Shown here: one piece after another, positions 6,981 through 37,230 of the stretch
How the letters are laid out: the number at the start of each line of letters is the position of its first letter
How positions within the stretch are numbered: position 1 is the stretch's first letter
Position numbers and translations under genes: made by a program
Assembly (NCBI RefSeq): GCF_023016045.1
Contig: NZ_JALKAP010000008.1
Coordinates: 62,001 to 126,000, forward strand
Origin: Marinobacter sp. S6332
GTDB taxonomy: Bacteria; Pseudomonadota; Gammaproteobacteria; Pseudomonadales; Oleiphilaceae
Length of the DNA stretch: 64,000 nucleotides
Reading direction: 5' to 3'
Notes under the pieces: generated by a model
Database searches by the model: none
The model's input: only the letters and a program-made list of their open reading frames with translations
Told to the model about the DNA's origin: nothing

Positions 6981-7631
6981 TTGTCCTATTCAGCCCGAAA
7001 TTCCCTAAGCGCGACCGTTTTCAGCGAAGATGTAAGCGCTCTCCGTCGAACGGGGCGTCTTTCAGCTGCCCGTTGGTGTCCGTCGCCTAATTACGGCCCG
7101 CGCCCATATGGCGCTTCAATAAGTCTTCTGGTAGTGCACAGCATCAGCTTGCCGCCAGGCGAGTTTGGCGGCCGTTATATTGAAGATTTTTTCACGAACA
7201 ACCTGAACCCCGCTCAACACCCATACTTTGAAACCATCGCCGACATGCGCGTTTCGGCCCACGTGTTGATCCGCCGAGATGGAAGCTTGACTCAATTTGT
7301 CAGCCTGCTCGACAGGGCCTGGCACGCTGGACGCTCTTGCTTTCAGGGGATAGAAGAGTGCAACGACTACTCGATCGGAGTTGAGCTGGAGGGCACAGAC
7401 GATATTCCGTACACCCCCGAGCAGTACCGGGCACTGGCTGAGCTCTCAGCGGTGATCTGCGTGGCCTGGCCGGACATTAGCAACGACCGTATTACTGGCC
7501 ACTGCGATATCGCCCCTGGCCGCAAGACCGATCCTGGGCCTGCCTTTAAATGGCACTACTTCCGGGTTGCTTTGGCAGAAGCTAAGTCTGGTCAGCACAG
7601 CGATGAGCCGCCCAGTAAAGGAGTCGTGTGA
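6981..7631 (+). CDS. ampD: 1,6-anhydro-N-acetylmuramyl-L-alanine amidase AmpD
   Basis: AmpD is the cytosolic zinc amidase that removes stem peptides from anhydromuropeptides during wall recycling and so keeps AmpR-type beta-lactamase induction low. The protein shows the RWCPSPNYGPRP entry motif, the zinc ligand histidine in VVHSIS and the C-terminal ligands in GHCDIAPGRKTDPGP, where H and D coordinate zinc. Length is 216 residues because of a roughly 30-residue N-terminal extension compared with the usual 185-190. No ATG or GTG is available in frame, so a TTG start at 6981 is the best choice, with only a weak ribosome site. It abuts ampE with no gap. Confidence 0.92.
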   Translation: MSYSARNSLSATVFSEDVSALRRTGRLSAARWCPSPNYGPRPYGASISLLVVHSISLPPGEFGGRYIEDFFTNNLNPAQHPYFETIADMRVSAHVLIRRDGSLTQFVSLLDRAWHAGRSCFQGIEECNDYSIGVELEGTDDIPYTPEQYRALAELSAVICVAWPDISNDRITGHCDIAPGRKTDPGPAFKWHYFRVALAEAKSGQHSDEPPSKGVV

Positions 7632-10660: not shown

Positions 10661-10771
10661 GGTCAGGTAGCGGTATTAACTTCAGAAACACGCTGTGAAT
10701 ACGTCCTTGTATGCTTGGCTCCGCCATCCATGGCTACGCACAGTTTCTGAAGTTAATACCGCTACCTGACC
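10661..10771. repeat. Long hairpin element A (29 bp perfect stem, 53 nt structured cap)
   Basis: The arms 10661-10689 and 10743-10771 are perfect inverted repeats of 29 bp. The 53 nt cap (10690-10742) contains two small hairpins: ATAC/GTAT closing the loop GTCCTT (10699-10712) and GCCA/TGGC closing TCCA (10723-10734). The cap matches the cap of element B at 45 of 53 positions by eye, but the arms are unrelated beyond the loop-proximal GAAAC. It lies between the chemoreceptor and pduO-type genes, which converge, so it could also act as a bidirectional terminator, although no clean T-run follows. Confidence 0.85.
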
Positions 10772-10815
10772 TGATTTTGGTGCAGGCCGTCACGCACTTC
10801 TAGTCGTAGTGAGTG

Positions 10816-11373
10816 TTACATCCCCGACTTCTTTTGATCCCACAAAATCTCTTCAGCGCCTTCTCTGCGCGCTAACACCCTTGAAGCTACAAACAACAAG
10901 TCTGATAAACGGTTCAAGTACTGGCGTCCCAGCGGGTTGATGGAGTCCTCATGGCTGAGGGCTACCACCACACGCTCTGCTCGTCGGCAAACGGCGCGGG
11001 CTAAGTGGCACTGGGCTGCTGCAGGGCTTCCGCCGGGTAGGATGAAGTTCTTCAGAGGTGGGAGAGGCTCGTTCATTTCATCCAGCAGGTTTTCCAGCCA
11101 GCTAATATGGTCTTCAGTGATCGCCTTGCTTCCCGGAATCGCAAATTCACCGCCCAGATCAAACAGGTGATGCTGAATGCGACGCATGGATTCCAGCATC
11201 TCGTCGTCGCTGTCCAAGGTTTCAATCAGCAGGCCGATATGGCAGTTCAGTTCATCGGCCATGCCCATGGCTTCAACACGCTGAGCATTTTTGGCAATAC
11301 GGTTGCCATCGGCCAGGCCGGTGGTACCGTCGTCACCTGTGCGGGTGTATATCTTGGAAAGGCGATTGCCCAT
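10816..11373 (-). CDS. Cob(I)yrinic acid a,c-diamide adenosyltransferase, PduO type
   Basis: This enzyme transfers the adenosyl group of ATP to cob(I)alamin, forming adenosylcobalamin. The 185-residue protein has the PduO/MMAB signatures: N-terminal KIYTRTGDDGTTGLADG for ATP binding, the VEAMGMADELNCHIGL helix and the C-terminal RRAERVVVAL and YLNRLSDLLFVASR segments. It is unrelated to CobA/BtuR-type enzymes. It is the last gene of the leftward pepA-holC-valS-panE-like series, 38 bp after the panE-like stop. No cobalamin synthesis genes are nearby, so it probably serves salvage. Confidence 0.93.
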   Translation of the reverse strand: MGNRLSKIYTRTGDDGTTGLADGNRIAKNAQRVEAMGMADELNCHIGLLIETLDSDDEMLESMRRIQHHLFDLGGEFAIPGSKAITEDHISWLENLLDEMNEPLPPLKNFILPGGSPAAAQCHLARAVCRRAERVVVALSHEDSINPLGRQYLNRLSDLLFVASRVLARREGAEEILWDQKKSGM

Positions 11374-11411
11374 GATGAGTGCTCCTGTTTAAAACCCATT
11401 TATTTAAAGCG

Positions 11412-12431
11412 TTAGAGACCTTTTACTCGCTCGGTCAGCATTTGGTTTACCGGCGTAGCAATACCATGGCGCTTTCCGCACTGCACAAGATAGCCGTTGA
11501 TAAAATTAATCTCGGTTTTACGCCTAGCTATAACGTCTGCGCGCATGGACGAAGTGTTGCCGGCGGTATTTCTCGCCACTTTCTCAATACGCTCCCGAAG
11601 GACCAACGGCGCTACAGCCTCCGAGGTTTCGGCCTGCAGCAGAAGAGATATCTCTGAACAAAGCCCGTCAATATTCTGTTGATAGAGTGGCAAGGCCAGA
11701 ATATCGCCATTAGGGCAGTCGAGCAGGGCGGTAAAAGGATTTATCCCGGCATTAACCACCAGCTTTTGCCAAAGCCGCTGCAGAATCTTGTTCTCAGCAT
11801 GAATTCGCAGACCGGTTTCAGTCAACTGTTGAACGACACCTGTTACATGTTCAGCCGCAGAAGCAGTAAGTGCACCTACCCAGGTGTCACCAGCCCCGGC
11901 ATGAACCAGCACATCCTGCGATGGCCGATTCGCCCCTTCGGTAGTGCTGGCAGCCAAAATCGGCCGTTGCGGCCAGCGCTCAGCAACTGCTTGCTGGCTG
12001 CCTAAGCCGTTTTGAAACAAAACAACGGGGGTGTCGTCCGGAGTATGAGGTAACCAGTCATTAAGGCCCGTAAGCGTATCGCCAGCCTTGGTGGTTACGA
12101 GCAGAAGCTTTACATTCTCAGCTGACCTAAGCCAAGGCAAATCAACATGGATGCAGGCTTCACCCGAGTCCGGCGAAGCCTTCAGGAAGTCCCTCCCGAA
12201 ACCTTGCGGAGCCATGGATGGCGGAGCAGAGTGTACAAGGATGTATTCACAGCGTGTTTCGGGAGGGACTTCCTGAAGGCTGAAGCTTCTCCGAAGTTCA
12301 CCACCAGAGCACCGAGGCAAAAAGCCACATTGGCCAGACGGCAAAAGGGCGGCCCAAAGCCGCCCCAAAGAACCCGCTCCAAGAATGGCAATCACCCCGC
12401 CACCCCCGGAACGCTCATCCGCAGACACCAT
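11412..12431 (-). CDS. 2-dehydropantoate 2-reductase-like protein with in-frame hairpin insertion
   Basis: A 339-residue ketopantoate reductase (PanE/ApbA) homologue, expected to reduce 2-dehydropantoate to pantoate with NADPH in coenzyme A synthesis. The N-terminal dinucleotide motif ILGAGSLGRLWAALL, the TTKAGDT strand, LFQNGLGSQ, the catalytic-lysine helix LWQKLVVNAGINPFTAL and the C-terminal TEINFINGYLV support this. It starts 2 bp after the valS stop. Residues 51-85 correspond exactly to hairpin element B: 105 nt, or 35 codons, read through without a stop. They fall between the second Rossmann strand and the conserved PWL...LLLVTTKAGD region, where the family has no such insert as far as I know. 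Whether the enzyme remains active is unclear, and panE paralogues are common, so I leave the symbol blank. Confidence 0.85.
   Translation of the reverse strand: MVSADERSGGGGVIAILGAGSLGRLWAALLPSGQCGFLPRCSGGELRRSFSLQEVPPETRCEYILVHSAPPSMAPQGFGRDFLKASPDSGEACIHVDLPWLRSAENVKLLLVTTKAGDTLTGLNDWLPHTPDDTPVVLFQNGLGSQQAVAERWPQRPILAASTTEGANRPSQDVLVHAGAGDTWVGALTASAAEHVTGVVQQLTETGLRIHAENKILQRLWQKLVVNAGINPFTALLDCPNGDILALPLYQQNIDGLCSEISLLLQAETSEAVAPLVLRERIEKVARNTAGNTSSMRADVIARRKTEINFINGYLVQCGKRHGIATPVNQMLTERVKGL
12177..12281. repeat. Long hairpin element B, inside the panE-like coding sequence
   Basis: The arms 12177-12202 and 12256-12281 form a perfect 26 bp stem around a 53 nt cap (12203-12255). Read on the minus strand, the cap is nearly that of element A, including the TAC/GTA mini-hairpin around ATCCTT and the GCCA/TGGC mini-hairpin around TCCA. 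Total length is 105 nt, a multiple of three. The minus strand is open in the gene's frame and encodes residues 51-85 of the reductase-like protein. A weaker outer extension (12171-12177 with 12286-12292) exists beyond a bulge. Confidence 0.88.
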
Positions 12432-12433
12432 GC

Positions 12434-15286
12434 CTACATGGCCTCAATATCTGCGCGCTGCTGCTGCAACCGGCCCATATTACCCTGAGCCTCAGCCAGC
12501 TTCTCCTGCTCCTTGGCCACAACTTCCGCAGGTGCCTTAGCAGTAAACTTCTCATTGTTCAGCTTACCCTCAAGACGCCCGATCTCTTTCTGCAAACGCT
12601 CAAGCTCCTTATCCAGCCGCTTCAGCTCCGCATCCTTATCAATCAGCCCAGCCATAGGCACCAACACTTCCATATCGCCAACCAGCTGAGTGGCACACAT
12701 GGGCGCATTGTCACCCTCAAACCACTCAAGGCTCTCCAGTTTGGCCAGAGAACTCAGGAATTGACGATTTTCATTCATTCGGCGCTGACCTTCCGCACTG
12801 TTGCCACGGAACAGAACCGGAATCTTCTTCGCCGGGGAAATATTCATCTCGCCGCGAATGTTACGCACGGCCACAATCACACCCTTAAGCCATTCAATAT
12901 CTTCGACGGCTTTAGCATCGTGCTTGCTGGTATCCACCTGCGGGAAAGGCTGCAACATGATGCTGTCGCCGGATTTGCCAGCCAGCGGTGCAATGCGCTG
13001 CCAAATTTCTTCCGTGATAAACGGCATGATCGGGTGCGCCAGGCGCAGAACGGTTTCCAGCACGCGCACCAAAGTGCGGCGGGTGCCGCGCTTCGCTTCA
13101 ACACTACCGCTGTCGTCGCTCAGGCAAGGCTTGGAAAGCTCCAGATACCAGTCGCAGTATTCATTCCAGATAAACTCATACAGAGCGTGAGAGGCCAGAT
13201 CGAAACGGTACTGATCTAAATGGCGGGTTACATCCTGCTCGCACTGCTGCAGGGCGCTGATAATCCAGCGATCGGCCAAAGACAGCTCTACCGGCTCGCC
13301 ATTCACGCCGCAGTCTTCGCCTTCCACGTTCATCAGCACGTAACGGGCAGCGTTCCACAGCTTGTTGCAGAAGTTGCGGTAGCCCTCCAGGCGCTTCATA
13401 TCCCAGTTGATGTCGCGACCAGTCGTTGCCATGGCTGCCAGAGTGAAGCGCAGGGCATCGGTGCCGTGGGCAGAAATACCTTCCGGGAACTCCTTTTCAG
13501 TCTGCTTGGCAATTTTCTTCGCCAGCTTGGGCTGCATCATGTTGCCGGTGCGCTTTTCCAGCAGCGGGGCAAGATCGATGCCGTCAATCATATCCAGAGG
13601 GTCAATCACGTTACCCTTGGATTTGGACATCTTGTCGCCGTGCTCGTCGCGGATCAGGCCCGTGACGTAAACGGTTTTGAAGGGAACCTGCGGGGTGCCG
13701 TCTTCATTTTTCATGAAGTGCATGGTCATCATGATCATCCGGGCAACCCAGAAGAAAATGATGTCAAAACCGGTCACCAGAACATCCGTCGGGTGGAAGG
13801 TTTTAAGGCGCTCGGTGATTTCTGGCCAGCCCAGTGTGCCGAATGTCCAAAGGGCAGAGCTAAACCAGGTGTCCAGCACATCGTCGTCCTGCTTTAGGCC
13901 GAAGTCGGCGGCCAGATTATGCTTCTGGCGGACTTCCTCCTCACTGCGACCCACATAAATATTGCCTTCGGCGTCGTACCAGGCAGGAATGCGGTGGCCC
14001 CACCAAAGCTGGCGGGAAATACACCAGTCCTGAATGTCACGCATCCAGGAGAAGTACATGTTCTCGTACTGCTTGGGCACAAATTGAATGCGACCGTCTT
14101 CGACCGCCTCAATGGCAGGCTCGGCTAGTTTCTTCGCATCGGCAAACCACTGGTCGGTCAGCATCGGCTCGATGATCAGGCCAGAGCGGTCACCACGGGG
14201 TACGCTCAGTACGTGATCTTCCACTTGCTGAACCAGATCGGCAGATTCCATATCGGCCACTATCTGTTTGCGGGCGTCCTCCCGGCTCAGACCCGCGTAA
14301 GCTGCGGGTAGGCTGGCATCCAGTTCGGTGTTTTCTGTACCGTCGCTGTTGAACACTTCGGCCTGCTCACGGATATCTGCATCCTGAGTCAGCACGTTCA
14401 TCATTGGCAGATTGTTACGTTTGCCTACGGCGTAATCGTTAAAGTCGTGTGCTGGCGTAATCTTCACGCAGCCGGAACCTTTCTCAGGGTCGGCGTGGTG
14501 GTCGGCAATCACCGGTATGCGACGGTTTACCAGCGGCAGCATCACGAACTTGCCAATCAGGTGCTGGTAACGCTCGTCATCTGGGTGAACGGCTACGGCG
14601 GTATCGCCCAACATGGTTTCAGGGCGGGTAGTGGCCACAACCAGATAGTCTTTACCATCCTGAGTGGTGGCGCCATCGGCCAGTGGATAGCGCAGGTGCC
14701 AGAAAAAGCCTTTTTCTTCCTTGTTCTCAACTTCCAGGTCTGAAATGGCGGTGTGCAGCTTCGGATCCCAGTTCACCAGACGCTTGCCTCGGTATACCAG
14801 GCCGTCTTCGTACAGGCGCACAAACACTTCCTGTACAGCTTTGTAAAAGCCGTCGTCCATGGTGAAGCGTTCGGTGTCCCAATCAACGGAGTTGCCTAAC
14901 CGGCGCATCTGGCCGGTGATGGTGCCACCCGATTCTTCCTTCCATTCCCAGATACGCTTGATGAACTCGTCGCGACCCAAGTCGTGCCGGGTTTTGCCTT
15001 CTTCGGCCGCCAGCTTGCGCTCAACCACCATTTGAGTAGCGATACCTGCGTGGTCGCTGCCCACTTGCCATAGGGTGTTATGGCCCTGCATGCGCTTGTA
15101 GCGGGTGAGGGTGTCCATGATGGTGTGCTGAAAGGCATGGCCCATGTGCAGGCTGCCGGTCACATTGGGTGGCGGAATGGCGATGCTGTAGGACTCGCCC
15201 TCTCCGCTGGGGCGGAAGTAGCCTTTGGATTCCCAGTTTTGGTACCACTGGCGCTCAATGTTTTCTGGCTGGTAGGTTTTTTCCAT
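12434..15286 (-). CDS. valS: Valyl-tRNA synthetase
   Basis: A class I synthetase of 950 residues that charges tRNA-Val, with editing of misactivated threonine. The HIGH-type motif appears as [14 protein letters not shown] (about residue 38), the editing CP1 domain holds [17 protein letters not shown], and the KMSKS loop is KMSKSKGNV (about residue 558). The C-terminal 65 residues are a charged coiled coil ([17 protein letters not shown]), typical of bacterial ValRS. It lies downstream of pepA-holC, but a 267 bp gap carrying hairpin element C separates it from holC, so it may have its own promoter. Confidence 0.97.
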
Positions 15287-15416
15287 GGGTTTTTCTGGCG
15301 ACCGTTTGATTGATTCACAAGGGGAAATTGAAACGCTGGATTATACATGGTCGCCTTCTGTCGGGCGAACCTTGGGTCGTTGCTTTCTACTCAGGACTGG
15401 ACGTTGGGAGTACTGC

Positions 15417-15520
15417 GAGCACGGCAGGGCTGTACCAAAACACGCTACAAGCACATCCCTGTGCGCTTGTTTCGGGCCGTCCTTGGCCCTCTACAGTTTT
15501 GGCACAGCCCTGCCGTGCTC
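15417..15520. repeat. Long hairpin element C between holC and valS
   Basis: The arms 15417-15441 and 15496-15520 form a 25 bp stem with a single A-C mismatch (15434 with 15503). The 54 nt cap (15442-15495) has the same architecture as elements A and B but a different sequence subtype: GCAC/GTGC closing ATCCCT (15451-15464) and GGGCC/GGCCC closing GTCCTT (15474-15489). It fills most of the 267 bp gap between the holC stop and the valS start, inside a leftward operon. No other gene is seen in that gap. Confidence 0.85.
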
Positions 15521-37031: not shown

Positions 37032-37079
37032 GCTTTCTGGGCCTGTTAACTTGGGTGTCTGAGCCGGAGAGGCGCCTTC

Positions 37080-37230
37080 TTTCAGGAACCGCTTCGAGCA
37101 CCCGCAAGCGGGTCCGGACAGCAATCATAGATTGCTGTCGTTCGGCTGCGCATGAAGCTTCGCTTCATAAACGCTTGCCTCACCCCTGTGGCTTGTCTCC
37201 GGCCGTCCTTGGCCTACGACATTCCTGAAA
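37080..37230. repeat. Composite hairpin element D, in the oadB-dnaE2 intergenic region
   Basis: The 306 bp between oadB and dnaE2 contains no gene. After the terminator it holds an outer 9 bp stem (37080-37088 with 37222-37230) enclosing a row of perfect small hairpins: 37100-37113, 37117-37139 (10 bp stem, ATA loop), 37152-37168 (7 bp stem) and 37201-37214 (GGCC/GGCC around GTCCTT). The last third resembles the cap of element C. It appears to be a degenerate or compound member of the same family. Confidence 0.6.

What the first reader, a model, noticed from the sequence alone, without database searches (positions are those of the whole stretch)
10661..15520. Family of long hairpin elements with conserved structured caps and copy-specific stems
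Seen directly: three elements (10661-10771, 12177-12281, 15417-15520) share length (111, 105 and 104 nt), a cap of 53, 53 and 54 nt, and loop-proximal AAAC/GTTT. Their outer stems are 29, 26 and 25 bp with at most one mismatch, yet unrelated in sequence between copies. The cap carries two mini-hairpins whose stems change in a compensatory way (ATAC/GTAT versus GCAC/GTGC; GCCA/TGGC versus GGGCC/GGCCC), while the apical loops keep the pattern RTCCYT or TCCA. Such covariation argues that structure, as RNA or folded single-stranded DNA, is selected or is copied by a mechanism that rebuilds the second arm from the first, for example template switching. Known REP/RAYT elements have conserved, short stems, so this pattern is different. 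I know of no named family with these properties, although similar repeats may exist unnamed in related genomes.
Basis: partly seen in the sequence, partly recalled or inferred. Interest (0 to 1): 0.8.

Follow-up and report, generated by a model that had tools for sequence, protein, structure and literature searches.

The report
Long hairpins with self-rewriting perfect stems
Some marine bacteria, probably Marinobacter, carry dozens of long hairpin repeats whose two matching arms keep changing together, as if one arm were repeatedly copied from the other, around a conserved and probably RNA tip that looks like a docking site for the regulator CsrA.

Summary
In detail: three elements at the stated coordinates, arms 29/26/25 bp with 0/0/1 mismatch. 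The family matches in all 37 same-genus genomes searched, 3 to at least 82 times. The cap resembles Rfam TwoAYGGAY, previously proposed to bind CsrA; window copies score below the cut-off, nine copies in relatives above it. Arms are not wholly unrelated: the inner 11 bp share a consensus. At orthologous loci both arms change together. In a close species pair arms differ by 10.7% (median) against 12.0% at 4-fold sites; in distant species arms lag. Point mutation plus selection under-predicts paired changes about 15- to 80-fold in the close pair; adding arm-to-arm copying comes near. Caps also invert and change length. Best reading: a TwoAYGGAY-like RNA whose outer stem is rewritten by replication template switching. 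Neither Y1 transposase nor reverse transcriptase tracks it.

The parts
10661..10771 (-). Element 1 (strand given is the GGA strand): arms 10661-10689 and 10743-10771 (29 bp, 0 mismatch), cap 10690-10742; 44 bp downstream of the cobalamin adenosyltransferase gene on the same strand and convergent with a chemotaxis-receptor gene
   Evidence: (94.5 bits with model R1)
10723..10734 (-). Cap hairpin A, GCCA-TGGA-TGGC, GGA in the loop
10700..10711 (-). Cap hairpin B, TACA-AGGA-CGTA, close to the CsrA SELEX consensus RUACARGGAUGU (PMC7652899 passage)
12177..12281 (+). Element 2: arms 12177-12202 and 12256-12281 (26 bp, 0 mismatch), cap 12203-12255. Lies in frame inside the panE-like ORF; the GGA strand is antisense to it
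   Evidence: (94.2 bits)
15417..15520 (-). Element 3: arms 15417-15441 and 15496-15520 (25 bp, 1 mismatch, G-U on the GGA strand), cap 15442-15495; between the valS and holC genes
   Evidence: (72.3 bits)
37063..37230 (-). Decayed long-cap copy: inner arms still pair over 9 bp (TTTCAGGAA/TTCCTGAAA), outer arms no longer do
   Evidence: (23.5 bits, E 0.005)
11412..12431 (-). panE-like ketopantoate reductase ORF that carries element 2 as about 35 in-frame codons
24844..24999 (+). csrA, the only CsrA match in this genome; candidate ligand, not shown to bind
   Evidence: G000:C38:86844-86999, converted

Best explanation
These are TwoAYGGAY-like structured elements, folded on the GGA strand, most likely as RNA. 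The conserved cap presents two short hairpins with GGA loops of the kind CsrA/RsmA binds; the outer 25-30 bp stem is a clamp whose sequence matters little beyond its inner end. The stem stays near-perfect because a mutation in one arm is often copied to (or erased from) the other by replication template switching between the arms (quasipalindrome correction), at roughly 20 times the point-substitution rate, with weak selection that tolerates G-U on the GGA strand. The same process can invert the cap. SHOWN: family, covariation, strand asymmetry, paired arm change far above the expectation from independent mutations, cap inversion and cap length switching at fixed loci. INFERRED: template switching as the agent, transcription of the GGA strand, CsrA binding, and a titrating (sponge) or 3'-UTR role.
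For: Paired change: with arm identity >=0.7, both-arm Watson-Crick replacements make up 44 of 525 stem columns in the close pair G007/G017 and 220 of 2,197 in four more distant species, against 0 of 192 and 9 of 521 in orthologous terminators. In the close pair median arm substitution divergence is 0.107 (27 pairs) against 0.120 at 4-fold sites. In a Markov model the point-mutation-plus-selection settings nearest the observed mismatch load predict 0.1-0.3% (close) and about 2% (distant); conversion c=20 with weak selection gives 4-7% and 24%. Transversion-type doubles, which cannot pass through G-U, are 105 of 220. Double changes cluster: 40 adjacent against 19.8 expected (pairs share elements, so not independent). 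Caps are inverted in 4 of 72 distant pairs (3 loci) with arm identity >=0.75 and at four close-pair loci. Arm homogenisation plus spacer inversion is the described signature of template switching (PMC8604942 abstract; PMC8794818 abstract and passages). Strand: 98 G-U on the GGA strand, 8 on the other, 42 neither (213 elements); one element per ortholog group 42:4, P=5e-9; other taxa 20:2, with 14 neither. RF01731. CsrA consensus.
Against: No expression data. In tandem gene contexts the GGA strand is sense for 24 ortholog groups and antisense for 14, a weak bias, and cap inversion would flip the transcript. In panE the GGA strand is antisense. T-runs follow the 3' arm on the GGA strand in 6 of 213, but on the other strand in 21 of 213. 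Arms diverge less than the adjacent 40 nt in most pairs (arm above flank in 3 of 23 close and 19 of 100 distant pairs, identity >=0.7), and in distant species far less than 4-fold sites (0.12 against about 0.45), so arm sequence is constrained to some degree. In the most similar arm pairs (>=0.85) only 12 of 44 doubles are transversion-type, as ordinary G-U-mediated compensation would also give. Some loci show wholesale arm replacement with an unchanged cap (L217/L237), which simple arm-to-arm copying does not explain and which inflates the double count. The model ignores recombination between alleles, and its distant prediction (24%) overshoots the 10-16% seen.
Confidence: 0.56

Rival explanations
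1. Ordinary compensatory evolution of a functional RNA: single mutations, often through G-U, later compensated under selection; no special copying.
For: G-U bias on one strand 98:8; transition-type doubles dominate in the most similar pairs, 32 of 44; strong covariation; arms diverge less than adjacent flanks.
Against: The model predicts about 0.1-0.3% doubles in the close pair at the observed mismatch load, against 4.9% (18 of 371, identity >=0.8) to 8.4% (44 of 525, >=0.7). Orthologous terminators, also RNA hairpins, change far less. Adjacent changes cluster.
Confidence: 0.13
2. A mobile DNA element recognised as a folded single strand (like REP/RAYT or integron attC), structure being kept for a nuclease or recombinase.
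For: 3 to at least 82 dispersed matches per genome; strand-specific G-T tolerance would also fit ssDNA; a weak flanking motif CACCAAAG on both sides; one in-frame copy inside panE; ten comparisons at five sites are truly empty.
Against: 133 orthologous filled pairs against 24 comparisons without a detected element, of which 14 held a missed or broken copy; but the stretches were fetched around cap hits, so shared sites are over-represented. No target-site-duplication signal: longest flank direct repeat 4.95 against 4.97 re-paired. Y1_Tnp and RVT_1 not found in several high-copy genomes. No match on plasmids or phages, nor by one exact pattern in viral contigs.
Confidence: 0.22
3. Arms are target DNA: the cap inserts and the local sequence is copied in inverted orientation at birth, giving copy-specific stems.
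For: Identical caps with different arms (L013, L014, L015). At some unfilled sites one arm-like stretch is present (L149:10320, L149:14496).
Against: At L232/L251 the single remaining arm comes with part of the cap, so it is a deletion product. Arms share an inner consensus. No clean pre-insertion site was recognised.
Confidence: 0.1
4. Transcription terminators or generic 3'-end stem-loops of neighbouring genes.
For: Convergent gene pairs are enriched: 25 of 74 ortholog groups flanked by two genes against 123 of 809 gaps; many sit 10-60 nt after a stop codon.
Against: T-run of four or more within 15 nt in 6 of 213 on the GGA strand and 21 of 213 on the other; long structured cap with conserved GGA.
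Confidence: 0.04

Closest known systems
Rfam TwoAYGGAY RNA (RF01731)
   Same: Two GGA-loop hairpins on a long external stem that is poorly conserved in sequence; listed for human gut, Gammaproteobacteria and Clostridiales (passages of PMC2864571 and PMC4333381). Nine copies in relatives exceed the curated cut-off.
   Different: Window copies score 31.4 and 24.8 bits or give no hit, below the cut-off of 43. High copy number, stems rewritten on both arms, cap inversion and cap length switching are not mentioned in the passages I read.
CsrA/RsmA-sequestering RNAs (CsrB, RsmZ)
   Same: GGA in short hairpin loops; hairpin B ACANGGANGU is close to the SELEX consensus (PMC7652899 passages).
   Different: Dispersed hairpins with 25-30 bp stems, no shown transcript; binding untested.
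Template-switch (quasipalindrome) arm homogenisation
   Same: Arms homogenised, spacer inverted, multi-base paired changes (PMC8604942 abstract; PMC8794818 abstract and passages).
   Different: In what I read it was reported for 39 yeast genes and for rRNA stems of short perfect pairing; here one repeat family with stems of mostly 25-30 bp shows it at many loci.
REP/RAYT elements
   Same: Dispersed, mostly intergenic palindromes.
   Different: Stems long and variable; no Y1 transposase match in G000. The REP definition is recalled.

Membership tests
TwoAYGGAY RNA (RF01731) | Bit score at or above the curated gathering score (43) | tested here: not met
   Window copies 31.4 and 24.8 bits, third no hit; two microRNA models also hit element 2 far below their cut-off, as long hairpins do. 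In relatives 9 copies in 7 of 38 genomes pass; 0 of 14 controls
TwoAYGGAY RNA (RF01731) | Two hairpins with AYGGAY-type loops | tested here: met
   GGA invariant in loop B, GG invariant and A at least 90% in loop A, in 63 aligned copies; loop B is A-N-GGA-N rather than strictly AYGGAY
TwoAYGGAY RNA (RF01731) | External stem, poorly conserved in sequence | tested here: met
   description in PMC4333381
CsrA/RsmA sponge RNA | Several GGA motifs in hairpin loops | tested here: met
   two loop GGA per cap; match to the SELEX site judged by eye
CsrA/RsmA sponge RNA | Transcribed and binds CsrA | not testable with these tools
   csrA present once in G000; no expression or binding data
Template-switch-maintained inverted repeat | Paired arm changes in excess of independent double mutation | tested here: met
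Template-switch-maintained inverted repeat | Spacer inversion between conserved arms | tested here: met
   4 of 72 distant pairs (3 loci) with arm identity >=0.75; four close-pair loci, two of them with arm identity below 0.7
REP/RAYT | Y1_Tnp-family transposase in the genome | tested here: not met
   no match in G000, G001, G005, G008, G009, G021-G024
REP/RAYT | Short stem with conserved sequence (definition recalled) | tested here: not met
Integron attC | Cassette array and tyrosine integrase nearby (definition recalled) | not tested
   copies are dispersed; no integrase search made
Intrinsic terminator | U-run after the 3' arm | tested here: not met
   6 of 213 on the GGA strand, 21 of 213 on the other

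The most novel reading that the evidence does not exclude
The loci form a class of hypervariable, near-perfectly paired hairpins in which both arms are rewritten as a unit while the cap is kept, possibly by a dedicated or cap-directed process rather than passive fork errors, so that each cell carries dozens of private duplex stems displayed on one conserved CsrA-type head. Behind it stand wholesale rewriting with an unchanged cap (L217/L237) and the same architecture in Lachnospiraceae with arms of 34-98 bp.
Probability: 0.12. Interest if true: 0.88.

Novelty: new variant of a known kind. Interest (0 to 1): 0.64.

Why it matters
How long RNA stems stay paired while their sequence drifts is an old question; template switching has been proposed from rRNA stems with short perfect pairing (PMC8794818). 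Here one repeat family offers, among six genomes of one genus, 102 ortholog groups of mostly 25-30 bp stems with measurable rates, clustered paired changes and cap flips, so the mechanism can be tested directly, for example in DNA-repair mutants. It also gives the functionally unassigned TwoAYGGAY RNA a folded strand, a structure and a testable CsrA-binding hypothesis, and warns that covariation can come from DNA copying as well as from selection on RNA.

Tried and rejected
RAYT link: Y1_Tnp does not follow copy number (G004 has 22 Y1 matches but 7 elements). Reverse transcriptase: no match in G001, G005, G010, G017, G031, G035, which have 58 to at least 82 element matches. CsrA gene number: one in 33 of 37 same-genus genomes while element number varies from 3 to at least 82. 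Target-site duplication: no signal. Arms shared between paralogs: 30 of 3,700 within-genome pairs match at >=11/14 against 16.5 after column shuffling (maximum 23), a weak excess only. Phage or plasmid carriage: no matches.

Rows dropped and limits: 6 of 154 inverted repeats judged not to be the family; 10 of 75 in the G007/G017 set when building the 213-element table; ortholog pairs involving two REP-type palindromes, L242:5683 and L249:8758. Two of the 27 close pairs (L222/L242) may be cross-paired neighbours; without them the median arm divergence is 0.105 instead of 0.107. Stretches of G061, G008, G022, G007 and G017 were chosen around cap hits, so sharing of sites is over-counted. Results depend on the arm-identity cut; searches give several. 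A first 4-fold estimate of 0.073 for G007/G017 counted false frames and was replaced by 0.120; one blastn line in that script named files that did not exist and returned nothing. BLAST with the cap alone found nothing in G033, the covariance model found 5. Gene calls are my own ORF and codon-usage heuristic.

Papers: PMC4333381, PMC2864571, PMC11701678, PMC7657543 and PMC7652899 were seen as passages; PMC8604942 as abstract and outline; PMC8794818 as abstract, outline and passages; all others only in search listings. That paired rewriting of TwoAYGGAY stems is not in print rests on searches of an open-access library.
Full report
Observation. An inverted-repeat scan, blind to the cap, of 1.41 Mb from four species of the genus (stretches fetched around cap hits) gave 154 long hairpins, 146 of them with loops of 53-58 or 131-137 nt, and none in 1.26 Mb of Markov sequence; 148 are this family. 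With a covariance model built here, all 37 same-genus genomes searched, the own genome included, have matches, from 3 (G012, G020, G026) to at least 82, the scoring limit; outside the genus, 4 of 21 same-order genomes do. Among named contigs most of those with the same cap and AAAAC-ended arms are Marinobacter, so the genus is probably Marinobacter (inference).

Strand and structure. Read on the reverse strand the common cap is TGTGCGGA-GCCATGGATGGC-GGAGCCAAGCG-TACANGGANGTA-TTCACAGCGT: two short hairpins with GGA in their loops, and in many copies a GGA/GGA internal loop below the first. In 63 aligned copies (of 102 ortholog-group representatives, picked by hand) 20 of 22 pairs have changes on both sides; 98.4% of cells pair, against 77.4% shuffled and at most 46.6% slid. 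Across 213 elements and 5,827 stem pairs there are 148 mismatches: 98 are G-U on the GGA strand, 8 would be G-U on the other strand, 42 are neither; 99 of 213 stems are perfect; one element per ortholog group gives 42 to 4 (P = 5e-9). In named contigs outside Marinobacter it is 20 to 2, with 14 neither; in Marinobacter contigs 12 to 0, with 6 neither. The GGA strand is therefore the one that folds, as RNA or as single-stranded DNA.

What it is. Rfam gives sub-threshold matches to TwoAYGGAY, RF01731 (31.4 and 24.8 bits for elements 2 and 1, none for element 3; cut-off 43). The lowest E-value in that call belongs to a microRNA hairpin model, 33.1 bits against a cut-off of 66, which I take as a generic long-hairpin match. 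Over 38 genomes RF01731 rings in 24, over the cut-off in 7 (9 hits), and in 0 of 14 controls. Five RF01731 hits that I compared (G000 C23:342430, G007 C1:766007, G022 C1:49360 and C1:595184, G008 C12:358208) coincide with elements or cap hits. [quoted passage not shown] Hairpin B resembles the CsrA SELEX consensus RUACARGGAUGU (PMC7652899 passages). Because the window copies miss the curated score I call them TwoAYGGAY-like, not members.

How the stems evolve. Flank matching gave 133 orthologous filled pairs among four species; of 24 comparisons without a detected element, 14 hold a missed or broken copy and 10, at five sites, are empty. Because stretches were fetched around cap hits this over-counts sharing. 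Arms at the same locus range from identical to largely different, yet remain complementary. In the close pair (G007/G017) 4-fold sites differ by 12.0% and arms by a median 10.7% in substitutions, 27 pairs (median identity 0.82 when length differences count). In the distant species 4-fold divergence is 0.39-0.47 but arms differ by only 0.12 at identity >=0.7, less than the adjacent 40 nt (0.18), so arms are not free of constraint. Requiring arm identity of at least 0.7, both-arm Watson-Crick replacements fill 44 of 525 columns (close) and 220 of 2,197 (distant), with 25 and 92 columns in which one or both carry a differing mismatch; orthologous intrinsic terminators in the same stretches give 0 of 192 and 9 of 521. 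At >=0.8 the element figures are 18 of 371 and 100 of 1,598.

A 16-state Markov model puts numbers on this. With point mutation and selection alone, the grid settings nearest the observed mismatch load (1.7% G-U, 0.9% other) predict 0.1-0.3% doubles for the close pair and about 2% for the distant ones, some 15- to 80-fold and 3- to 6-fold too few. Adding arm-to-arm conversion at 20 per unit of neutral substitution, G-U neutral and weak selection against other mismatches (scaled S of 2), gives 4-7% and 24%, with 2.3% G-U and 1.0% other. This is a coarse fit with simplifying assumptions and it overshoots the distant data. Changed pairs are also clustered (40 adjacent against 19.8 expected, 72 stems). 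A clear example is L216:15488 against L236:4443: two neighbouring pairs replaced on both arms while the cap and the rest of the arms are identical. Transversion-type doubles are 105 of 220 at identity >=0.7 but 12 of 44 at >=0.85, so G-U-mediated compensation probably contributes.

Cap dynamics. Among 72 distant pairs with arm identity of at least 0.75, 17 have a short cap in one species and a long (about 131-137 nt) cap in the other, and 4 pairs at 3 loci have the cap inverted. In the close pair four further loci are inverted (L225/L245, L230/L250, L233/L253, L235/L255), two of them with arm identity below 0.7. Homogenised arms and inverted spacers are the described footprint of template switching (PMC8604942 abstract; PMC8794818 abstract and passages). 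One locus (L217/L237) keeps an identical 57-nt cap while about 16-19 outer bp of both arms are different; I cannot explain this by simple correction. Short orthologous caps are 0.957 identical when arms match (>=0.75), 0.900 when they do not, paralogous caps 0.818, so caps are mostly inherited vertically.

Context and spread. Counting one vote per ortholog group, 25 lie between convergent genes, 24 and 14 in tandem pairs with the GGA strand sense and antisense, 11 between divergent genes; the background of gaps is 123 convergent, 481 tandem, 205 divergent. A T-run follows the 3' arm in 6 of 213 on the GGA strand and 21 of 213 on the other. A weak CACCAAAG motif lies on both flanks (31 of 102 and 54 of 102 at >=6/8, against 14.4 and 29.9 expected) without the behaviour of a target duplication. 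No match was found on plasmids or phages, nor by one exact pattern in viral contigs. Y1 transposase and reverse transcriptase are not needed for high copy number.

Beyond the genus. Those with stems include Stenotrophomonas, Lysobacter, Pseudoxanthomonas, Vreelandella, Halieaceae and Lachnospiraceae. The five Lachnospiraceae copies have arms of 34-98 bp around a cap of roughly 130-165 nt; whether those arms are also rewritten was not tested.

Mechanism, graded. Shown: family, fold strand, covariation, paired arm change far above independent mutation, cap flips. Inferred: template switching (about 0.75), RNA rather than ssDNA (about 0.7), CsrA as ligand (about 0.45). Unknown: how new copies arise and why some loci change arms wholesale.

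Noticed in passing
12177-12281 inside 11412-12431: Element 2 adds about 35 in-frame codons to a panE-like gene between the Rossmann motif and the rest of the N-terminal domain (about 25 residues more than PDB homologue 6k1r, judged from two alignment pieces of which the first is weak). The element is at the same place in G061, G022, G008 and apparently G081, so paired arm changes alter the protein at two places at once.
   Followed up: partly
L296, L309, L326, L338, L339: Lachnospiraceae contigs carry TwoAYGGAY-type hairpins with arms of 34-98 bp; four have at most 2 mismatches, L296 has 6 in 83 bp. All mismatches are G-U in L326 and L338, one of two in L339, none in L296.
   Followed up: partly
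37063-37230: Decayed long-cap copy whose outer arms no longer pair, showing that stems are not always maintained.
   Followed up: partly
flanks of elements, e.g. L018, L038, L044: Motif CACCAAAG on the GGA strand a few nt outside both arms, at a preferred distance; role unknown.
   Followed up: partly
L230:11060, L242:5683, L249:12548: A different palindromic repeat, GTAGGTCGGATTAG..CTAATCCGACCTAC, recurs in G007/G017; it looks REP-like.
   Followed up: no
L159:15114, L178:2603: Another inverted repeat around CCCCTCTCCC..GGGGAGAGGGG in G008 and G022.
   Followed up: no
L139 about 7400-7550: In G061 one whole element is followed by what looks like the right half of a second one; G008 keeps only the first, G000 and G022 only the second, suggesting loss by deletion between neighbours.
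   Followed up: partly
G051 (same order): Carries 9 CsrA matches and 75 element matches, the highest CsrA number among the 58 genomes searched.
   Followed up: no
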